From an uncultured Trueperaceae bacterium (GTDB taxonomy: Bacteria > Deinococcota > Deinococci > Deinococcales > Trueperaceae), in contig CALCHY010000337.1 in NCBI GenBank assembly GCA_937907415.1, positions 1 to 9,179 on the forward strand: DNA of 9,179 nt. Reading direction: 5' to 3'. The notes below the pieces were generated by a model. That model saw only the letters and a list, made by a program, of their open reading frames with translations. It searched no databases and was not told the DNA's origin. Position 1 is the stretch's first letter. Each line of letters starts with the position of its first letter. Made by a program: the position numbers and the translations under genes. This document shows positions 1 through 8,866 of this stretch, one piece after another.

Positions 1-149
1 AGGCCAGTTACAACCCGACCAAGGGGAGGTTCTAGATGACTGAGGACGGCTGGGTCCGGACGGAGTCACGTCTCTAGGCTGAAGTTCCGCATGGTGAAAG
101 CGTAGTTCGCTCGTCCTGCACGCGAAGTGCGGGCTGTGCGGGGTTCTGT

Positions 150-1561
150 CTACACGCTTATGCTATTCAGCAAGTCCAGCGCCTGCTGCTGCGCGCGGAT
201 GGGGCTGGTGGTCATGGGGAACGTCACGCCGGTGGCGGGATGCTGGCAGGAGTCCGGGGTGATGGTCGCCAGGTGCTCCAAGCGACCCTTGAAGGTCCGA
301 GCGGGCGAGCCGTCAGACAGGCTGTTCGTGCGCGCCTTGCGCATGGCGGCGGCTGACCTCTCGGCGAGCGCCACCGAATCGCGCTCCTGGTTGGAGTCAT
401 CGTCCTCGACCGTCGGTTCGACCAGGCGCGCTCCAGGTGACACCTGACGTAGTAGACCTGCATGCAGATGAGCAGGTGCGCCTTCACCCGGTCGCTTGAA
501 TGGCGGTGGATGGGCCTGACCTTCAGGTCGACGCCTTTGTCGGCGCGCACCGCCTCCGCGGCGCTCAGGTCCTCTGCGCTCTCGCTGATGCTGATGATGT
601 AGATGCAAGTCCATGGCCGCCTCGGAAGCGACGCTCCCCTGTTCGACTTCGAACTCGAATTTGTCGTCGTGAATGGCATGCGTATAGCGCTTGCTCATGG
701 GGTACTTCGCGAGCTTCTCACCCACCCGCAGGCCGGTCCGCGCCTAGCCCTGCAGGCGGCCCAGCACCAGGTTGCCGCAGGCGATGAGGTGCTCGCAGGG
801 GTAGTCGGCGTGCGTCACCTCCGCCAGGTTCTACTCCCCGAACAAACTCGGCTAGATGACGCCATCCACCAGCTTCTTGAGGCCGTCGCTCTTCAGCGCC
901 GTCACCCAATCCGCCCCGGCTGCCCTCAGGGCATCATGGTGCGTCCCGGCGATCGTTCCCCGATCACCCACCAACGTGAACGACTTCAGCCCGAAGTGCC
1001 CCCAGAGCTTCTTCGCGGGCGGCAAGAGCGTGCGGGCGTCACCCGTGTTGCCCGGGAACGCCGACAGCGCGATGGGCCTACCCGCGTCATCGGTGAGCAG
1101 CCAGAAGCTGATCTGCCGCTTACCCGCTTCTTAACGCGGTAATGATCGAACCTTGCAAAGCGGCGCTTCTCGCCCTTCACGTAGGTGGAGTTCAGGTCGA
1201 ACAGCACCCGCGCGCCCCACCCAGGTGCCAGGCCGCCTACTTGCCCTCGACGCGCGCCTGCCGCGAAACGAGCCGGCCCATGGCGTGATTCACGGTGTGC
1301 TGGTCGACGCCCTGCACCCCGAACTCAGCCGCCGGCGTGGTGTCGGGGCACGCCCTAGTCGCCGCTAGCTTGCTTTTGGGGTTCAGCGCCCAGAACGCGA
1401 CCAGCGTCTCGCCCCTAAGCACCCGCCGCAGCACCAGAACCTGCACTTCCGTGACCGCGCCCGTCAGGTTGACCACGGCGCACCTTGCCGTCCTCGCGCC
1501 ACGCCTCCCTGAGCAAGATCGCCGGCCTAGAGGTGCGGTTGGAGACAATGTCAATGTGCAT
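150..1561 (-). pseudogene. Decayed IS1634-family (DDE) transposase
   Basis: Transposase remnant read on the minus strand in alternating frames. The N-terminus MHIDIVSNRTSRPAILLREA starts at 1561. It is followed in another frame by VLRRVLRGETLV and NPKSKLAATR, then LFDLNSTYVKGEKRRFARF near 1200. Next comes a long stretch with LTDDAGRPIALSAFPGNTGD and LVGDRG (about 1120-950). The C-terminal part is VDLKVRPIHRHSSDRVKAH and DGSPARTFKGRLEHLATIT, ending in TAG at 150-152. These blocks, in this order, are typical of IS1634-family transposases. At least five frame changes are needed, and in-frame TAG codons lie at 852-854, 831-833 and 744-746. About 65-70 residues appear to be missing after RGETLV. 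The usual segment with the catalytic Glu before VDLKVRP also looks lost. The element cannot make an active enzyme. I found no convincing terminal inverted repeats. Confidence 0.85.
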
Positions 1562-1751
1562 GGGCGAAGAAACCACGCCATGCAGCATGCAAACGGCACT
1601 TGCAGCGCGCGTTACATGGGTACGCGGTAAGCGCAACACAACCGGTCCGATCATCCGTACCATCGTCAGGGACACGAGAACGAAGGGGTTAGGTTTCGGT
1701 GATCGCTTGGAACTTCAGTGTAGTCAGTCGCTGCCGAACGCCAGAAGGGTG

Positions 1752-1807
1752 GCCCGCTGTAGACGGGCTTCGGTCGAGAACTACCCAGGGTGTGCGTTCA
1801 AGCACAC
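1752..1807 (-). terminator. Possible hairpins downstream of the helicase gene
   Basis: Two short perfect inverted repeats lie just past the helicase stop codon. GTGTGC (1790-1795) pairs with GCACAC (1802-1807) around a 6-base loop. GCCCG (1752-1756) pairs with CGGGC (1764-1768) around a 7-base loop. Neither is followed by a T tract on the minus strand, so an intrinsic terminator is only weakly supported. The rest of 1562-1813 shows no gene that I can defend. Confidence 0.25.
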
Positions 1808-1813
1808 GCAATC

Positions 1814-4800
1814 CTACTCGTCCACAAGCTGGACGAAGATGGTTTCAACGCCTGAGTGTCCCACAAGGGCAATTTCACCGACTATCAACTCAGACTCTAG
1901 GTCCAAATAGAGCGCGAAGAGATCAGGCGAATGAAACAATCGCCTCCGCTCCGCTATTACCGCGATTAGGCGATCATTAGGTGTCAGGGCGAACCACAGT
2001 CGACTTGCCCGAATGGGTGGGTTGAGCTTCTTCAATAGGTCGGAGGCTTTGTCCACTTGGGGCGAATGGGCGGGCTTCTCAGAACGTACCTTCTCCGAAG
2101 TCACGGATATGGGCTTGGATATCGAACCATGCATGAATTGGGGCTCTACGAGGAGCCCAGTTGCCTGGCAGCGCTCCAATGACTGCCGCAGGTATCGGCG
2201 ACCGGTGAACGGACTTATCACAGTATGGTGCGGATGCGCGGCTTCACCTGCGACTGTTACGACTGCCATAGACCTCAAGAGGGGGGTGCGGCACTCCTCG
2301 CAATGAACGAGAAGGCGGCTAACTACGGTTTTGCCGCTCACCGTGCAGGTGCCCGCGGCACCGGGTGCAACTAGCAGTCCGCTCTCCTCGCAGCGGACGA
2401 ACTCACTCTCCAGGCCCCATAGACCTGTCTCGGGGCAAAGGCAAAGCAAACGCTTAAGAACACACTTTCCCGAGATGTCGGAGACGCCCAGTAGGTCTAG
2501 CCTTGTTCGCATCCCAGACTGCTCACACGTGGCAGTCTCCGACGGCAGTACGTGAGTCCCACTCTCTTCGCAAACGAAGAGTTCTGTCGCCAAAGCTAGG
2601 GCGTTGGAGAACGCAGAGGGAAATAGCAGACTATTGTCCACGACTAGGCCGCTAATCGCGGACCTGCCGACCTCGTCCGGCATGAGATGAGCCCCGCTCA
2701 CCGCGCATCGGAACATCTCCTCCGGAGCAGCAAGCCGAGAGGCGTCTCTGTCCGATCGGACCAACAAGTCTTTGCGGATTGGTTTGCCGCTGACTGAACT
2801 TGGAGCAGACTCTTGTGGCAGGACGCTATCGCCCGATATTGCGCAAGTTAGAAACTCCGAGATGTGTCCGATTACGCCCGACACGGCACATGCTCCCTCT
2901 TGGTCTGTACGGTAGCGGCGGCCGCTAACTTGACTGACCGCGAGGTAGCCAAGAAGCACCGGCTCGCATGTGAACTCGCAAGTGTCGACTTCATCTGAGG
3001 CCGCAACTTTTCCGGTTACGGCGCACTTGGTAGCGTGATTAGGCGAGACCCATCGGGAGGAGATTTCGCTTCTCCAAGCTTCTGTCGGAAGTAGACGTTC
3101 TCCTGACACCTCGCATGTCACTAGTTCATCTTGGAGCCCTAGCCTGCCGCTCCAACTGGATGGGAGTAGTAGGAGAGAATCGACGATAAGACCGCTGACT
3201 TCGGAGACGCCGGTTTCGTCAGGTAATAGAAGCCTGTCCGTGACTGCGCAGCGCATCATTTCTTGCTGGGTTGCTAGCCGACTCGGGTTCTTCTGCGAAG
3301 GTATCAATAGGTCTCTCTTTACGAGCTTTCCACTGGCGTCGCTGATAGAGGCCTCTTCGGGTAGCACAAGTGCGCCGGAGAGCTCGCACACCACAAACTC
3401 CGTTATGTGACCTGCGGTGCCGGACATCGCAGAGCATGCTCGCTGGTCTGTCCTATACCTTTGGCCGCTGACCTGGCTAATCGCGAGACGGCTTTCATGT
3501 GCCATTGAACCCGTAAACTCGCACGCTGCGACCTCATCAATTGCCGCGAGCAAGCCGGTCACGGCGCATGCGACGACATTCCGAGGCGCAAGGGGTCGTG
3601 ACGAGAAGGCGCTCAGAACGGCTTCGGTAGGAAGTAGGATGTCGCCAGAGAAGGCACAGACTACGGCAGCTTCCGGCAGCATGCGCACACCAGAAACGGA
3701 AGAAGTAACCATCAAATGTGACAAAGCCTGCACTCCCGTAACGCCACATGCACTGAGGTCGCTTTCTGGGAAGTGTCCGCCCGTCAATTGGCACTCCGCT
3801 AGAGTTGGGCCAGACAGGATCTCGCCCTGTCCGCCCAGGAGCAGAACGGTCCTTGCCTCGGGCCCGTTGTCGTATCGATACCGAACCACAACCTCTCTCA
3901 TTTTCTCGAGCGTGCCCTCTGCCGAAACCAGTTCGGCGGTAGTCCGAGGTGTGAACCGTTCTGTCAGGCGTCGAGTCAAATCGGGTGAAGCGCCCGCCTT
4001 TTGAAGCTCTAGGGAAAGGCGTGCCAAATAGAAATCATTGAATGCCCTCAAGGATGAATCACCTTGGACGGCCGATTGGAGGGCCGCCAAGGCTGGCTCG
4101 GGGTAAGAGTCCCGCGTCAAGCTCTTGGTGCGTATTGCGGCATGCCATCTGGAAATGGCGTGCGCTGCCGCCGGGGAGTCCGGCACTTCGTCCCCAAGCC
4201 AACCACTAGTTGGGCTCTCGGCTCTAACCAGGCGTTGTAGGCGGTCTACGGCATTTGAACAAGACGCCAATGCGGTAATACTACCAGTCAAGCGTAGTCT
4301 AGTGGTCAAGATGCTAGTGTGCGTCCAGGTTAGGAGAGGAGATAGCTTCTGAACCCAATCGCTCGTAACCTGATATAGGTGATCCTTCGGCAAATCGCGA
4401 GGCGACAATGAGTGTAACCGTTTCGCCGAATGGGTACCAATGATGCGTTCAAAGATGCTCTGTCCTTCTGCATAGAGTCGGGTTGGTCTTCCACAGGACT
4501 CGTGCGATGGTGCTCGGAGGTTGGGGTCGGCGGGGTCGAACGTGGCGAAGTGAATCCCGATGCCATCCTCAAGTAGTCGGAGGCGACCATCATCCATCTC
4601 TGTAACGTCGCCACGACTTGCAAAATGCAGCTTTACTAAGTCCCTTACAGCCATGCGTGGGTTCACGGGTTTGATGTCTGGCGAATCGGGTCCAGCATGA
4701 TGAAGGGAGTCCAAAGAACTGGTCCCAAGGCTCTCAATCATCAATGATTGGCTCTCATCGTATAGGCGTTTGGCCCGATTTATGCTCTCTTCGATGCGTT

Positions 4801-6457
4801 GGCGGCTCTCACGAACGTCCTTGCCAGCGAGCGCTAGGAGAACAAGGTTCTTGATTTGCTCTTCTACGTCCTCGTCTCGGTTCAGTACGCCAAGAATGCC
4901 TTCAATGTCTCCAATCGCACGGGATATGAGCTGGAGGCGCTCCATCAACCTAGCGACGACGAGTTCCTCCACGGACCCTTCGACTACGAGGTTAGTGACG
5001 ATAACGTTAGAGTGCTCCGAGCCTAGCCGTTGGACTCGGCCAATTCGTTGCTCAAGTACCATAGGATTCCAGGGGAGATCGTAGTTCACCACGATATTGC
5101 CAGACTGGAGATTCACACCCTCTGCGCCTGTATCGGTGCTGATGAGCACGTTGACTCGGGGAGGGTTCTCCTGATACTTCAGGATGTCGTTGTCTTGCCT
5201 GTGCACGTAGTCTCCACCGATGTACCCAACACGCGCACCACGTGCTTTTAGTGCTTTCCCCAGCGCCCGCTGCGTTGCCTTACGCCTAGTGAAGATTACT
5301 GTGTGCCAAGAATTTGGTTTCTGCGCTCGGAGCCCATCAATTAGTTCGAACAAACGTTTGGCCTTACAGCCCAAGGGAGACGACTCGGCGATACGCTGTA
5401 CCTCGTCAATGACACTTTGCCTCACGTTTGCTTGGTTTTTCGGGTTGCCGATCTGTTTGGCGAAGGCAGCTGGACTGCTCATCAAGGCAATAGCGAGGTT
5501 GACTCGCTGAAGCGGGTTGGCGTGGGGTAGATGGGTACGAAGAAGTGCTTCAAGTCGGTTCTCAATGCCGGTTGCTTCGCAACGCCACGTCTCAACCTTC
5601 CGTTCAGGGAAGGATAGTCCTGATTCAAGGCGTGTCGTGCGGACTGCATACTCACTAACGATTCGTCGGAACCGAGCAACTTCGCTGGTTTTGATGGATC
5701 TCGCGGCTACTTTATCGCTCAAGTATCTATCAGAAAAGGCACGCGGCGAACCCAGTGGGTTCTCGTGACCTCTGGCTCCCGACATTATGTCAACTAACGA
5801 ATAGAGATCCCAAAGCCGGTTCTGTATCGGTGTTGCGGATAATAGAAGTGTGAACTGGAACGCAGTGTCTGAGGTCACGCGCTTTATCGCTGTCGCAATC
5901 CTTGGAACCTTGCTCGCTCCGAAGAGGTTCCGCAGTTTATGAGCCTCGTCAAGCACCAACATGTCGAAATCTGCATTTGCCAAAGCGTCGATTCTCTTGA
6001 GGGCCGACGCATAAGTGGTGATGACTACCTGTGTATCGTTTGAAATGAGTTGCGAGAGCCTTTGCCCGGTGCCGAAATCGGCTTGAAGCCTGAACTTACT
6101 CGTGAGCTCCGCCTTCCACTGTGGAAGGAGAATCTTAGGCGCCAGGACTAGAACCCGCCCGACCCTCTTTCGGACCATGAGTTCGCTGATAATCAGTCCG
6201 GCACTGATCGTCTTCCCCATGCCGACGTCGTCCGAGATTAGCTGCACTGGGCCTAGGCGGCAGAAAGTTATGAGGTTCTGGACCTGGTGTCTAAATGGTT
6301 CAACTAGGCCCGACCAATGTACGGCCGACTTTATGTCAGCGGCATCGCGCACGATGATGGATGAAGCGAGGGTGAACTCGATGGCCGCAAGTGCGGCGGC
6401 AGCCATTTCCGGGGGCTGTGCAGCCTCAAGCACGGGAATGTGAGTCTCGATCTCCAT
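1814..6457 (-). CDS. Giant SNF2/RapA-like helicase with C-terminal 15-residue CxxSG repeat array
   Basis: A predicted ATP-dependent DNA (or nucleoprotein) translocase of the SNF2 group, 1547 residues, presumably cytoplasmic; I see no signal peptide or membrane segment. Helicase motifs are complete and in order: Q-like FRHQVQN (55-61), motif I DDVGMGKT (76-83), Ia VLVLAPKILLPQW (102-114), II DEAH (170-173), III LLLSATPIQNR (204-214), IV HTVIFTRRKA (385-394), V TDTGAEGVNLQ (441-451), VI EQRIGRVQRLG (469-479). A charged helical, probably coiled-coil stretch follows (about 498-580), then an unassigned middle region to 888. Residues 889-1444 form about 37 tandem 15-residue repeats, and 1445-1547 a compact cap. 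RapA is about 970 residues, so the excess is mostly the array. The ATG at 6457 is preceded by an in-frame TAG at 6473-6475, so no longer start exists; there is no clear Shine-Dalgarno. The frame is intact over 4.6 kb between broken transposases. Known relatives include RapA, DrmD (DISARM) and DpdE. The exact subfamily and the substrate are unknown. Confidence 0.95.
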   Translation of the reverse strand: MEIETHIPVLEAAQPPEMAAAALAAIEFTLASSIIVRDAADIKSAVHWSGLVEPFRHQVQNLITFCRLGPVQLISDDVGMGKTISAGLIISELMVRKRVGRVLVLAPKILLPQWKAELTSKFRLQADFGTGQRLSQLISNDTQVVITTYASALKRIDALANADFDMLVLDEAHKLRNLFGASKVPRIATAIKRVTSDTAFQFTLLLSATPIQNRLWDLYSLVDIMSGARGHENPLGSPRAFSDRYLSDKVAARSIKTSEVARFRRIVSEYAVRTTRLESGLSFPERKVETWRCEATGIENRLEALLRTHLPHANPLQRVNLAIALMSSPAAFAKQIGNPKNQANVRQSVIDEVQRIAESSPLGCKAKRLFELIDGLRAQKPNSWHTVIFTRRKATQRALGKALKARGARVGYIGGDYVHRQDNDILKYQENPPRVNVLISTDTGAEGVNLQSGNIVVNYDLPWNPMVLEQRIGRVQRLGSEHSNVIVTNLVVEGSVEELVVARLMERLQLISRAIGDIEGILGVLNRDEDVEEQIKNLVLLALAGKDVRESRQRIEESINRAKRLYDESQSLMIESLGTSSLDSLHHAGPDSPDIKPVNPRMAVRDLVKLHFASRGDVTEMDDGRLRLLEDGIGIHFATFDPADPNLRAPSHESCGRPTRLYAEGQSIFERIIGTHSAKRLHSLSPRDLPKDHLYQVTSDWVQKLSPLLTWTHTSILTTRLRLTGSITALASCSNAVDRLQRLVRAESPTSGWLGDEVPDSPAAAHAISRWHAAIRTKSLTRDSYPEPALAALQSAVQGDSSLRAFNDFYLARLSLELQKAGASPDLTRRLTERFTPRTTAELVSAEGTLEKMREVVVRYRYDNGPEARTVLLLGGQGEILSGPTLAECQLTGGHFPESDLSACGVTGVQALSHLMVTSSVSGVRMLPEAAVVCAFSGDILLPTEAVLSAFSSRPLAPRNVVACAVTGLLAAIDEVAACEFTGSMAHESRLAISQVSGQRYRTDQRACSAMSGTAGHITEFVVCELSGALVLPEEASISDASGKLVKRDLLIPSQKNPSRLATQQEMMRCAVTDRLLLPDETGVSEVSGLIVDSLLLLPSSWSGRLGLQDELVTCEVSGERLLPTEAWRSEISSRWVSPNHATKCAVTGKVAASDEVDTCEFTCEPVLLGYLAVSQVSGRRYRTDQEGACAVSGVIGHISEFLTCAISGDSVLPQESAPSSVSGKPIRKDLLVRSDRDASRLAAPEEMFRCAVSGAHLMPDEVGRSAISGLVVDNSLLFPSAFSNALALATELFVCEESGTHVLPSETATCEQSGMRTRLDLLGVSDISGKCVLKRLLCLCPETGLWGLESEFVRCEESGLLVAPGAAGTCTVSGKTVVSRLLVHCEECRTPLLRSMAVVTVAGEAAHPHHTVISPFTGRRYLRQSLERCQATGLLVEPQFMHGSISKPISVTSEKVRSEKPAHSPQVDKASDLLKKLNPPIRASRLWFALTPNDRLIAVIAERRRLFHSPDLFALYLDLESELIVGEIALVGHSGVETIFVQLVDE
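2573..3115 (-). repeat. 181-residue superunit, copy 2
   Basis: Residues 1115-1295 of the helicase, from CEVSGERLLP to LATELFV, directly abutting copy 1. By hand I count about 94 identical positions of 181 (about 52 %) and no gaps. The single extra residue sits at the same place in both copies, so the duplication copied a whole twelve-repeat block. Copy 2 keeps a Cys at unit position 76, where copy 1 has CS at 75-76. After it, the array continues with looser repeats; SPFTGRRYLRQSLER near residue 1415 echoes the RYRTDQ repeat. Confidence 0.88.
3116..3658 (-). repeat. 181-residue superunit, copy 1
   Basis: Residues 934-1114 of the helicase, from CAFSGDILLP to LQDELVT. The unit holds twelve 15-mers plus one extra residue near its position 136. 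It aligns without any gap to the next 181 residues. Shared landmarks are CAVTG at unit position 31, CEFT at 46, SQVSGxRYRTDQ at 61, GHIxEF at 83 and RCAV at 136. Confidence 0.88.
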
Positions 6458-7109: not shown

Positions 7110-7604
7110 GTGGGTGCGCTGGTGGCGATGGAGCGCGAGGGCGCCTTTGGGGCGGAGCTCATCGGCTGCTACCAGCGCAACGAGTAGGCGTTGGTGCTGT
7201 AGCGGGCAGCGCATCGGTGGCCGACTACGTTGCGCTCTTCGGCCAGCGCGCGCCAAGGTGGTGAGGAAGCGTCTGGTGGGGTTTACGGCAAGTCCGAAGG
7301 TAATCTACGCCGCTTCTGATTGGGAGTGGGTGTTGCAGTTCGCTCGCGAAGTGGTGGTGCGCTGGAGCGCTTCAACTCCTGGTTGAAGCTCAGGACCAGG
7401 GTCGTTCGAATCTTCCCGGACCGCGAGGCGTGCCGGCGGTTGGTGACAGCACTCAGCGTGGAGCTGTCCGAGGAGTGGCTTTCGGACCGGTGGTCCTTGG
7501 GCATGGGGCCGCACGATGGCCGCGTCGGCCTCGCCAACGGCACCGGAACAGGAAGCCTAGCGATGGCTTGCCCTGGCGGAACGATTAGTCGATTTGAGGC
7601 TTGA
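7110..7604 (+). pseudogene. Degenerate IS256-family transposase with large internal deletion
   Basis: Plus-strand remnant in two recognisable parts. An N-terminal-like stretch reads FGAELIGCYQRNE-stop-ALVL (7146-7202), like the F.TEL..RYQRSEKALVLAL block of the family. It has TAG codons at 7185-7187 and 7200-7202. A C-terminal stretch in another frame from about 7365 reads ERFNSWLKLRTRVVRIFPDR, then LVTALSVELSEEW, closing with a stop at 7602-7604. The core with the DDE residues is missing between them. Its C-terminus differs from that of the minus-strand fragment next door, so they derive from different copies. Confidence 0.8.
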
Positions 7605-7926: not shown

Positions 7927-8866
7927 ATGACTTCCGGGGGGATCGATGTCAGCAAGTTATCCCTGGATGCGGCCGCCATTCTGGAGCCAGGCGAGGTCGA
8001 GCGGCGGAACCTCGCAAACGACCTTCTGGGACACGGCCAACTGCTGGCGTGGTTGTTGGCGCTCCCCGATCGACTCATCACGTTTGAAGCGACCGGCACT
8101 TACCACCGGCAACTCGTGAAAGTGTCGGAAGACGCCGGAGAACGCGTGAGCGTCCTCAACCCAGCGCAGGTTAGCCACTTCGCGAAGAGCCAGGCGCGGT
8201 TCAACAAGAGGGACAGGATCGACGCGCTCCTGCTAGCCATGTACGGCAAGGGACGCCAACCGGCTCCGAGCCAGGAGGCGAACAGTAGCTTGCAGTCCTT
8301 GGCGCGGGAACTAAACGCCCTGCAAGAAGGCATCACGCGCCTCAAGAACCGCCTGGAGGCTGCCGAGCACGGCCTCGCCCACCTCCCTAAAGCGCCGCAT
8401 CCAAGCGCTAGAAGAAGAGAAGGCGGGGTTGCAAGCGTAGCTCGAGAACGAGGCGCGCCGTGCACGCGAGCGCGAGCTGGCACTGCTTGAGCGCATCCTG
8501 GGTGTCGGCACGAAATCAGCGTTCGCGTTCCTCGCCGAGGTGGGTGACGTCAGCCGCTTCTCATCAGCCGCGAAACTGGTGGCGTACGCCGGCCTCGGTC
8601 CCATGGTCGTGCGATCCGGTAGTAGCGTGGCTAAGCAGACGCGCAACTCAGGAATAGGCTCAGAGGAAGCACGCCAAGCCAGCTACATGGCCAGCCTGGT
8701 CGGCATCCGGCATGACCCCCTCCTGAAGGCCTTCTACGAACGCCTGGTAGCTCACGGGAAGAACAAGAAGGCGGCCCCCCTCGCCTGCGTAGCCATACTC
8801 CTTCGCGTCATGTACGGTGTCCTCATCCATCAGCGCCCGTTCGACGCCAACTATGCGGCCACTTGA
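7927..8866 (+). pseudogene. IS110-family transposase (DEDD), disrupted
   Basis: The N-terminal RuvC-like DEDD domain is complete: GIDVSK with D7, TFEATG with E54, and KRDRIDA with D96 and D99. A coiled-coil linker follows (LKNRLEAAEHG, then LKRRIQALEEEKAG). The C-terminal domain reads ILGVGTKSAFAFLAEVGDVS, AAKLVAYAGLGP and RSGSSVAKQ, where one of the Ser residues is the likely nucleophile; it ends PFDANYAAT before TGA at 8864-8866. The first frame runs to about 8383, where it must shift to the frame that carries the rest. In that second frame a TAG lies at 8438-8440. One frameshift and one amber therefore separate two otherwise well-kept domains, which suggests recent inactivation compared with the neighbouring IS remnants. 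The shift lies in the linker, so programmed frameshifting is conceivable, but the amber argues against it. Confidence 0.9.

What the first reader, a model, noticed from the sequence alone, without database searches (positions are those of the whole stretch)
2126..3793. Strict 15-residue [C/S]xx[S/T]G repeat array of about 37 units in a SNF2 helicase
The C-terminal third of the protein divides into 15-mers with almost no indels. Position 1 is Cys or Ser in about 36 of 37 units and positions 4-5 are usually SG or TG. I do not recognise such an array from RapA, DrmD, DpdE or other SNF2 proteins. A long periodic scaffold fused to a translocase could form a solenoid, a clamp or a ligand-reading surface.
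Basis: seen in the sequence. Interest (0 to 1): 0.85.

Follow-up and report, generated by a model that had tools for sequence, protein, structure and literature searches.

The report
Zinc-free hairpin solenoid on SNF2 motor
A bacterial DNA-motor protein carries a long rod of 37 small repeated hairpins that look like zinc fingers which have lost their zinc, and across its relatives the rod changes length almost only in steps of four hairpins, which points to an unrecognised kind of protein scaffold.

Summary
The array is real: the 1547-aa protein (window 1814-6457, minus) has a SNF2/Helicase_C motor, and residues 889-1444 are 37 units of about 15 residues. No Pfam or NCBIfam model reaches its cut-off there, though single units resemble the one motif in DUF2093. 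The array recurs in 183 database proteins and 24 genome loci. AlphaFold2 predicts loop-strand-turn-strand units (pLDDT 89 and 95); the nearest solved folds are zinc fingers, all weak. Divergent relatives carry zinc-type units (C1, C4, C9, H12; period 15) in the same register. I read the array as a zinc-finger-derived hairpin solenoid without metal.

New: units form 12- or 8-unit blocks. Of 140 end-anchored arrays, 126 have 4n+1 units; of 36 tree-independent length differences, 29 are multiples of four. A quantum of four hairpins (60 aa) is likely. Function is inferred: a multivalent binding arm on a presumed dsDNA translocase, in an accessory and possibly defence-related gene, beside a nuclease gene in 6 of 24 loci.

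The parts
1814..6457 (-). SNF2-helicase plus 15-residue-repeat gene, 1547 aa, complete ORF
5024..6244 (-). SNF2-related domain and Helicase_C (residues 72-478); helicase motifs read as intact in the sequence (DDVGMGKT, DEAH, EQRIGRVQRLG; motif roles recalled)
   Evidence: Pfam PF00176 9.4e-25, PF00271 1.8e-17
3803..4870 (-). family-specific region between helicase and array (about residues 530-885), no Pfam match; a Blastopirellula protein without helicase looks similar by eye
   Evidence: resemblance read from the sequence, not tested
2126..3793 (-). array of 37 fifteen-residue units (residues 889-1444)
   Evidence: loop and two strands in each unit, a helical turn between them in 33 of 37
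3251..3295 (-). marker unit 12 (QKNPSRLATQQEMMR) preceded by a 16-residue spacing; ends the first 12-unit block
2708..2752 (-). marker unit 24 (DRDASRLAAPEEMFR) preceded by a 16-residue spacing
2708..3250 (-). internal 12-unit, 181-residue super-repeat (units 13-24); in the alignment the 25-unit relatives lack one 181-residue stretch that covers this block shifted by a few residues
3389..3478 (-). conserved pair of units 8-9 (RYRTDQ...GHITEF): R1002, D1004, G1016, H1017, E1020, F1021 invariant or nearly so
2846..2935 (-). second copy of the conserved pair (RYRTDQ...GHISEF) in the next block
   Evidence: listing; block profile
1817..2125 (-). C-terminal alpha+beta domain (residues 1445-1547), weakly NTF2/cystatin-like in structure comparison

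Best explanation
The array is a metal-free solenoid of zinc-knuckle beta-hairpins. Each 15-residue unit descends from a zinc-finger half-unit C1-x2-C4-x4-C9-x2-H12-x3, in which the ligand places are now C/S1, S/T4, L9 and E/L12. Hairpins stack end to end, and four of them (60 residues, the size of a LIM or FYVE domain) form the structural quantum, so arrays lengthen or shorten by whole quanta, most often by a 12-unit block. The rod is held at the end of a SNF2-type ATPase, which I infer to be a dsDNA translocase, and works as a rigid multivalent binding arm: blocks repeat one conserved patch (unit with R9/D11 followed by unit with G8-H9-x-S-E12), so several copies of a partner or a polymeric ligand could be engaged while the motor pulls DNA. 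The gene behaves like an accessory, possibly anti-invader system, in some lineages next to a PD-(D/E)XK/RNase H-type nuclease gene. Shown here: the array, the block structure and length rule, the predicted unit fold, the register with zinc-type units, the sparse distribution, the adjacent nuclease genes. Inferred: solenoid stacking, zinc-free state, translocation, binding role, defence role.
Confidence: 0.5

Rival explanations
1. The array is a DNA- or RNA-gripping clamp: the hairpin solenoid wraps the duplex on which the SNF2 motor moves, raising processivity.
For: Fusion to a SNF2 ATPase; adjacent nuclease genes in 6 of 24 loci; K/R at unit position 6 in 55% of units.
Against: Net charge of the array is -18 in the window and -4.5 on average over 143 proteins, though some members are positive (P0110 +14, P0058 +4); the positive position 6 is balanced by D/E at 11-12.
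Confidence: 0.2
2. The array is a pentapeptide-repeat-like quadrilateral beta-helix (15 = three pentapeptides; 60 residues = three coils), perhaps a DNA mimic as in MfpA/Qnr.
For: Profile of eight units hits MfpA at E 0.0016 and QnrB1 at 0.011; hydrophobic positions 3, 8 and 13; 4 units x 15 = 3 coils x 20 would explain the quantum; negative net charge in the window. Coil length and DNA mimicry are recalled.
Against: Positions 6 and 11, which would be small inward residues of that fold (rule recalled), are K/R (55%) and D/E (48%). AF2 puts a helical turn at positions 10-12 in 33 of 37 units. The 50 rows shown of each PDB fold search include no pentapeptide protein. Zinc-type units share the register.
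Confidence: 0.06
3. The array still binds metal or is redox-active: Cys at position 1 (20 of 37 units) pairs between neighbouring units, as a zinc or disulphide sensor.
For: C is 51% at position 1 over 5470 units; in 12-unit blocks C is near-invariant at units 2, 5, 8 and 11; flanking zinc-type modules in one clade.
Against: S replaces C in 42% of units; only 34 of 6299 units keep CxxC; AF2 is confident without metal, though it often is for zinc proteins too (recalled).
Confidence: 0.12
4. The length rule is only a relic of copying: blocks of 12 or 8 units duplicate as units of DNA recombination, with no structural quantum.
For: Marker spacings recur at 12 (114 gaps) and 8 (39 gaps); 15 of 36 differences are multiples of 12.
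Against: Fourteen of 36 differences are multiples of 4 but not of 12 (4, 8, 16, 40), including close relatives 73/69 and 41/37; the window's blocks are too diverged to show as DNA repeats.
Confidence: 0.3
5. A RapA-like RNA-polymerase recycling factor with an unusual C-terminal scaffold, not a defence protein.
For: RapA is among the best solved relatives of the motor and its model scores 118.9 bits.
Against: Far below the RapA cut-off of 576 bits; sparse distribution; restriction, HerA and nuclease genes beside some members.
Confidence: 0.08

Closest known systems
LIM, FYVE, PHD and related treble-clef zinc fingers (PDB 1joc, 2a20, 7d2t, 2xjz)
   Same: hairpin-knuckle-short-turn arrangement; four units span one 60-residue domain; a LIM finger with its helix reduced to a short turn is described in PMC4999995 (passages seen)
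DUF2093 (PF09866)
   Same: short proteins with one unit of the same kind: a single 15-mer scores 14.7 and 17.6 with the unit matrix in two genomes; DUF2093 matches 6 of 24 array segments, best E 0.00057, and is precomputed for 2 of 120 relatives
   Different: one unit only in a 42-position model, no array, no helicase; uncharacterised; matches to arrays cover 10-18 residues where ranges were shown
Phage proteins of the KpV48 kpv48_08 / Shigella phage Buco gp9 family (Autographiviridae)
   Same: predicted structures match eight units at E 9e-5, TMq 0.63 (Buco); Cys-rich C-terminal parts with CxxC pairs and ligand-poor stretches
   Different: no helicase and no long regular array seen; aligned part not shown; the array's sequence finds no phage record
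DISARM DrmD, DpdE, BrxHI/HII SNF2-type helicases
   Same: best-scoring named helicase models for the motor
   Different: NCBIfam scores far below cut-offs; the best stretches listed lie in the helicase part
RapA (RNA polymerase-associated SNF2 protein)
   Same: SNF2 motor with long extensions; sequence relatives by the motor
   Different: 118.9 bits against a cut-off of 576; matched stretches shown are in the motor
Pentapeptide repeat proteins (MfpA, QnrB1)
   Same: weak profile hit, E 0.0016; hydrophobic residue every fifth position
   Different: residue rule (recalled) not met, predicted unit fold differs
PF13482 / DUF2779 nucleases
   Same: gene of about 500 aa next to the array gene in 6 of 24 array loci; placed among presumed 3'-5' exonucleases, with a PD-(D/E)XK-like domain in DUF2779 and COG2251 proteins (PMC3985635, passages seen)
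   Different: a neighbour, not part of this protein; not found in the window

Membership tests
DISARM DrmD (NF038317) | full-length model score at or above the curated cut-off of 610 bits | tested here: not met
   196 bits
DISARM DrmD b (NF038318) | cut-off of 950 bits | tested here: not met
   180.3 bits
DpdE (NF041062) | cut-off of 500 bits | tested here: not met
   174.4 bits
RapA (NF003426) | cut-off of 576 bits | tested here: not met
   118.9 bits
SNF2-type SF2 ATPase | SNF2-related and Helicase_C domains above gathering scores | tested here: met
   87.7 against 24.9 bits and 64 against 23.5 bits
SNF2-type SF2 ATPase | ATP-driven translocation on dsDNA | not testable with these tools
   inferred from the family
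LIM/FYVE/PHD zinc fingers | complete Cys/His zinc-ligand sets | tested here: not met
   1 of 37 window units has Cys at position 4; 34 of 6299 family units have CxxC and none of those has C/H12
LIM/FYVE/PHD zinc fingers | treble-clef fold | tested here: inconclusive
Pentapeptide repeat family | small inward residue and hydrophobic residue in every five (rule recalled) | tested here: not met
   positions 6 and 11 mostly charged
Pentapeptide repeat family | four-sided beta-helix | tested here: inconclusive
   AF2 gives loop-strand-turn-strand units; no such protein among the rows shown
Described Pfam family covering the array | a model at its gathering score in the array | tested here: not met
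   met by none in the window. In relatives, short matches do occur: 7 of 120 listed carry precomputed PF09866 (2), PF26196 (4) or PF00766 (2, one shared); P0101 passes ETF_alpha PF00766 (29.8 against 27 bits) on 19 residues. PF26196 is not in the library at hand, so it was not examined
DUF2093 (PF09866) | model at its cut-off of 25 bits | tested here: not met
   window segment 10.9 bits
Known phage-defence system | conserved complete operon of a named system | tested here: inconclusive
   restriction, HerA and nuclease genes in some loci, no constant partner set in 24 loci

The most novel reading that the evidence does not exclude
An undescribed class of protein solenoid: zinc-finger hairpins that replaced their metal by packing, with a structural quantum of four hairpins (60 residues), evolving in length only by whole quanta and serving as a ruler-like multivalent arm of a SNF2 motor in an accessory anti-invader system.
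Probability: 0.35. Interest if true: 0.82.

Novelty: new variant of a known kind. Interest (0 to 1): 0.65.

Why it matters
Long solenoids built from former zinc fingers would show how a metal-dependent mini-fold can turn into a metal-free repeat scaffold, with zinc-type units still present in some relatives and a single-unit cousin in DUF2093. The length rule (4n+1 units, 12- or 8-unit blocks) is a sharp, testable statement about superstructure in a repeat protein, and one structure could check it. For bacterial immunity and DNA processing it marks a family of SNF2 motors in Planctomycetota, Alphaproteobacteria, CPR and other bacteria whose C-terminal arm the libraries searched here do not name, some beside a nuclease gene. 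The consensus could also serve protein design as an extendable rod.

Tried and rejected
DNA tandem repeat or recent amplification: TRF finds none. Phage or plasmid cargo: tblastn of the array finds nothing in 72,556 plasmid records at E 1e-3 and 50,697 phage records at E 1e-2. Of 172 IMG/VR stretches that encode a helicase relative, the best 80 (78 loci) were kept and none holds an array by my parser; the other 92 were not seen. Array on unrelated proteins: of 43 array hits of 307-959 aa I read six; they begin inside or after the helicase region, so I take them as truncated or split SNF2 relatives. Three of the six lie on contigs of about 90 kb or more, so a natural helicase-less form is not excluded; the other 37 were only parsed for units. 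The one clear helicase-less family is a Blastopirellula-type group (8 proteins of 426-452 aa; four read). Zinc intermediates inside arrays: weak. Charge-based DNA clamp: not favoured. Pentapeptide helix: see rivals; no pentapeptide protein stands in the rows shown, an absence in limited lists only. Papers on BREX SNF2 helicases (PMC12839542, 12 of 16 passages seen) and a planctomycete proteome (PMC8567305, passages seen) describe no such array in those passages. That the array is undescribed rests on paper searches only (listings and starts of abstracts), in an open-access library.

Full report
WHAT IS THERE. The minus-strand ORF 1814-6457 encodes 1547 aa. Pfam finds a SNF2-related domain (residues 72-297) and Helicase_C (367-478) and nothing at its gathering score in the array. 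The closest named helicase models (DrmD, DpdE, RapA) are far below their cut-offs; the 25 of 54 PADLOC rows shown have their best stretches in the helicase part (BrxH, DrmD, HmaA, DpdE and others).

MORE THAN CHANCE. Lag-15 identity is 0.193 against 0.073 +/- 0.011 for shuffles. The array is not a DNA tandem repeat. The commonest residues over 5470 units of 120 homologues are C/S-A/E-V-S/T-G-R/K-R-V-L-P-D-E-L-V-R/T.

FAMILY. A search with the array region found 183 proteins at E<=1e-3 among 7991 scored candidates; 120 were listed, and all but one of these (P0096) list a SNF2 or Helicase_C domain. In ten genomes searched whole, all matches at E<=1e-6 lay at one locus each. In samples of three groups the array was found in 7 of 392 genomes (five SNF2-type by frame length, two helicase-less), 2 of 379 and 4 of 397, seed genomes included. 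The first look of that tool scored only 4-5 candidates in most larger genomes, so these are lower bounds. The gene is accessory and sparse.

BLOCKS AND THE LENGTH RULE. Unit-by-unit identity peaks at lags 3, 6, 9 and above all 12. A 16-residue spacing that precedes a marker unit (EKNPSR type) recurs every 12 units (114 gaps) or, in a 14-protein group, every 8 (39 gaps); 166 of 182 gaps are multiples of 4. The plain parser gives 4n+1 units in 92 of 120 proteins, or 88 of 113 that look full length. With both ends anchored by cap profiles, 143 proteins were examined (120 and 23 from loci), 3 dropped, and 126 of 140 have 4n+1 units, with values 13, 17, 25, 33, 37, 41, 45, 49, 53, 57, 61, 65, 69 and 73. 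These include at least two pairs of identical entries and some truncated proteins. Of the 14 exceptions, 5 are in the zinc-flanked clade, whose caps differ, and 1 (P0097) is cut short; the other 8 are unexplained. On a tree of 135 proteins (five of the 140 left out as incomplete; first 560 residues used, a few with doubtful starts) the count changes at least 54 times, parser errors included. I picked closest pairs with different counts on non-overlapping paths: 29 of 36 differences are multiples of four (p 4e-12 against one in four), 20 of 25 among pairs closer than 1.0. Fifteen are multiples of 12, fourteen are other multiples of 4. In the alignment the 25-unit relatives lack one stretch of 181 residues. 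The tree is a quick one with weak deep branches, and the null of 25% ignores block copying, so the p value overstates the case; the pattern itself is plain.

ORIGIN. Five divergent relatives (P0106, P0108, P0110, P0117, P0118) have, shortly before the array, zinc-type units C-x2-C-x4-C-x2-H-x3 repeated with period 15. Laid on the array unit, ligands fall on positions 1, 4, 9 and 12. With the ligands masked, the in-phase register still scores best of 15 (-26 against -120). The five are related, so this is one observation made five times, and zinc binding itself is read from the pattern. Within arrays, 10 of 6299 units show C9 with C/H12 (about 4.5 expected from the margins), and CxxC units show no such link. 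Loss of zinc in treble clefs is described (PMC4999995, passages seen); a long quantised array of this kind was not found in searches.

WHERE ELSE. A Blastopirellula-type family of 426-452 aa carries 3-4 units by the parser with a CxxC pair and no helicase (8 proteins). Its N-terminal part resembles the region between helicase and array by eye only. DUF2093 proteins of two genomes hold one good unit (scores 14.7 and 17.6), so the unit also exists singly in a described but uncharacterised Pfam family.

NEIGHBOURS. Around 24 array loci the one repeated close neighbour is a nuclease gene of about 500 aa next to the array gene in L004, L009, L010, L015, L017 and L018, four of them directly downstream on the same strand. 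Three were scanned singly: L004 and L010 give PF13482 with PD-(D/E)XK, L015 gives DUF2779; the others rest on clusters and tallies of 3 and 3 among 90 neighbours. PMC3985635 places both families among presumed 3'-5' exonucleases (passages seen). Others: type I restriction genes before L001, HerA before L002; L113 stands beside genes that read as a type I restriction set (my reading of N-terminal sequences). Among 90 neighbours, 3 match a HerA model and 2 a type I methyltransferase model at 1e-10. There is no constant operon and no control set was run, so defence is a lead.

MECHANISM. The arm is acidic in the window and near neutral on average, so I prefer protein binding to duplex wrapping. 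The patch R9/D11 in one unit and G8-H9-x-S11-E12 in the next is invariant or nearly so at R, D, G, H and E in its first copy in aligned members from CPR to Planctomycetes. At the matching units of 114 internal blocks R9, D11, H9, S11 and E12 are at 60-85% and G8 at 40-60%. Positions 9 and 12 are the former ligand places. A rod with about one patch per block suits multivalent binding of a partner while the motor acts on DNA. This step is inference.

CAVEATS. No structure coordinates were seen; unit counts depend on my parser; the family is mostly metagenomic; one record that holds a member is titled Klebsiella pneumoniae but is a MAG bin and may be misassigned.

CHECK.

Noticed in passing
window 7927-8866 (+): IS110-type transposase in two pieces in different frames (DEDD_Tnp_IS110 and Transposase_20), a broken mobile element upstream of the gene.
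   Followed up: partly
window 7320-7604 (+): C-terminal remnant of a Mutator-family transposase.
   Followed up: partly
window 1-1910: GC-rich stretch with overlapping ORFs on both strands and no Pfam match in the five tested; coding content unclear.
   Followed up: partly
L111:8297-9580, L112:9011-10318: Blastopirellula-type 427-435 aa protein with 3-4 of the same units plus a CxxC pair and no helicase; similar neighbouring genes in both genomes by N-terminal reading.
   Followed up: partly
L211 and L212 (about 1501-1626): DUF2093 proteins contain a single unit of the array type (scores 14.7 and 17.6); a possible single-copy relative of the repeat.
   Followed up: partly
L004, L009, L010, L015, L017, L018: Neighbouring PD-(D/E)XK/RNase H-type nuclease gene (PF13482 or DUF2779) beside 13-, 17- and 25-unit members.
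   Followed up: partly
L001: 49-unit member on a contig whose record is titled Klebsiella pneumoniae MAG; probably a misassigned bin (my guess).
   Followed up: no
L040:9971-13668: Bradyrhizobium member split into two overlapping frames (468 aa and 775 aa); frameshift or sequencing error, not resolved.
   Followed up: no
L209:3323-5302 and L210:438-2162: Conserved Autographiviridae proteins that match the array fold in predicted structures; 299 phage records hold relatives of the first, function not known here.
   Followed up: partly
P0106, P0108, P0110, P0117, P0118, P0120, L116: Separate clade on the tree (SH-aLRT 99) with Cys-rich flanks and different caps; could be the zinc-bearing ancestral type, but the tree is unrooted.
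   Followed up: partly
P0002, P0048, P0073, P0110: Precomputed PF26196 matches of unknown meaning (family not in the library at hand).
   Followed up: no
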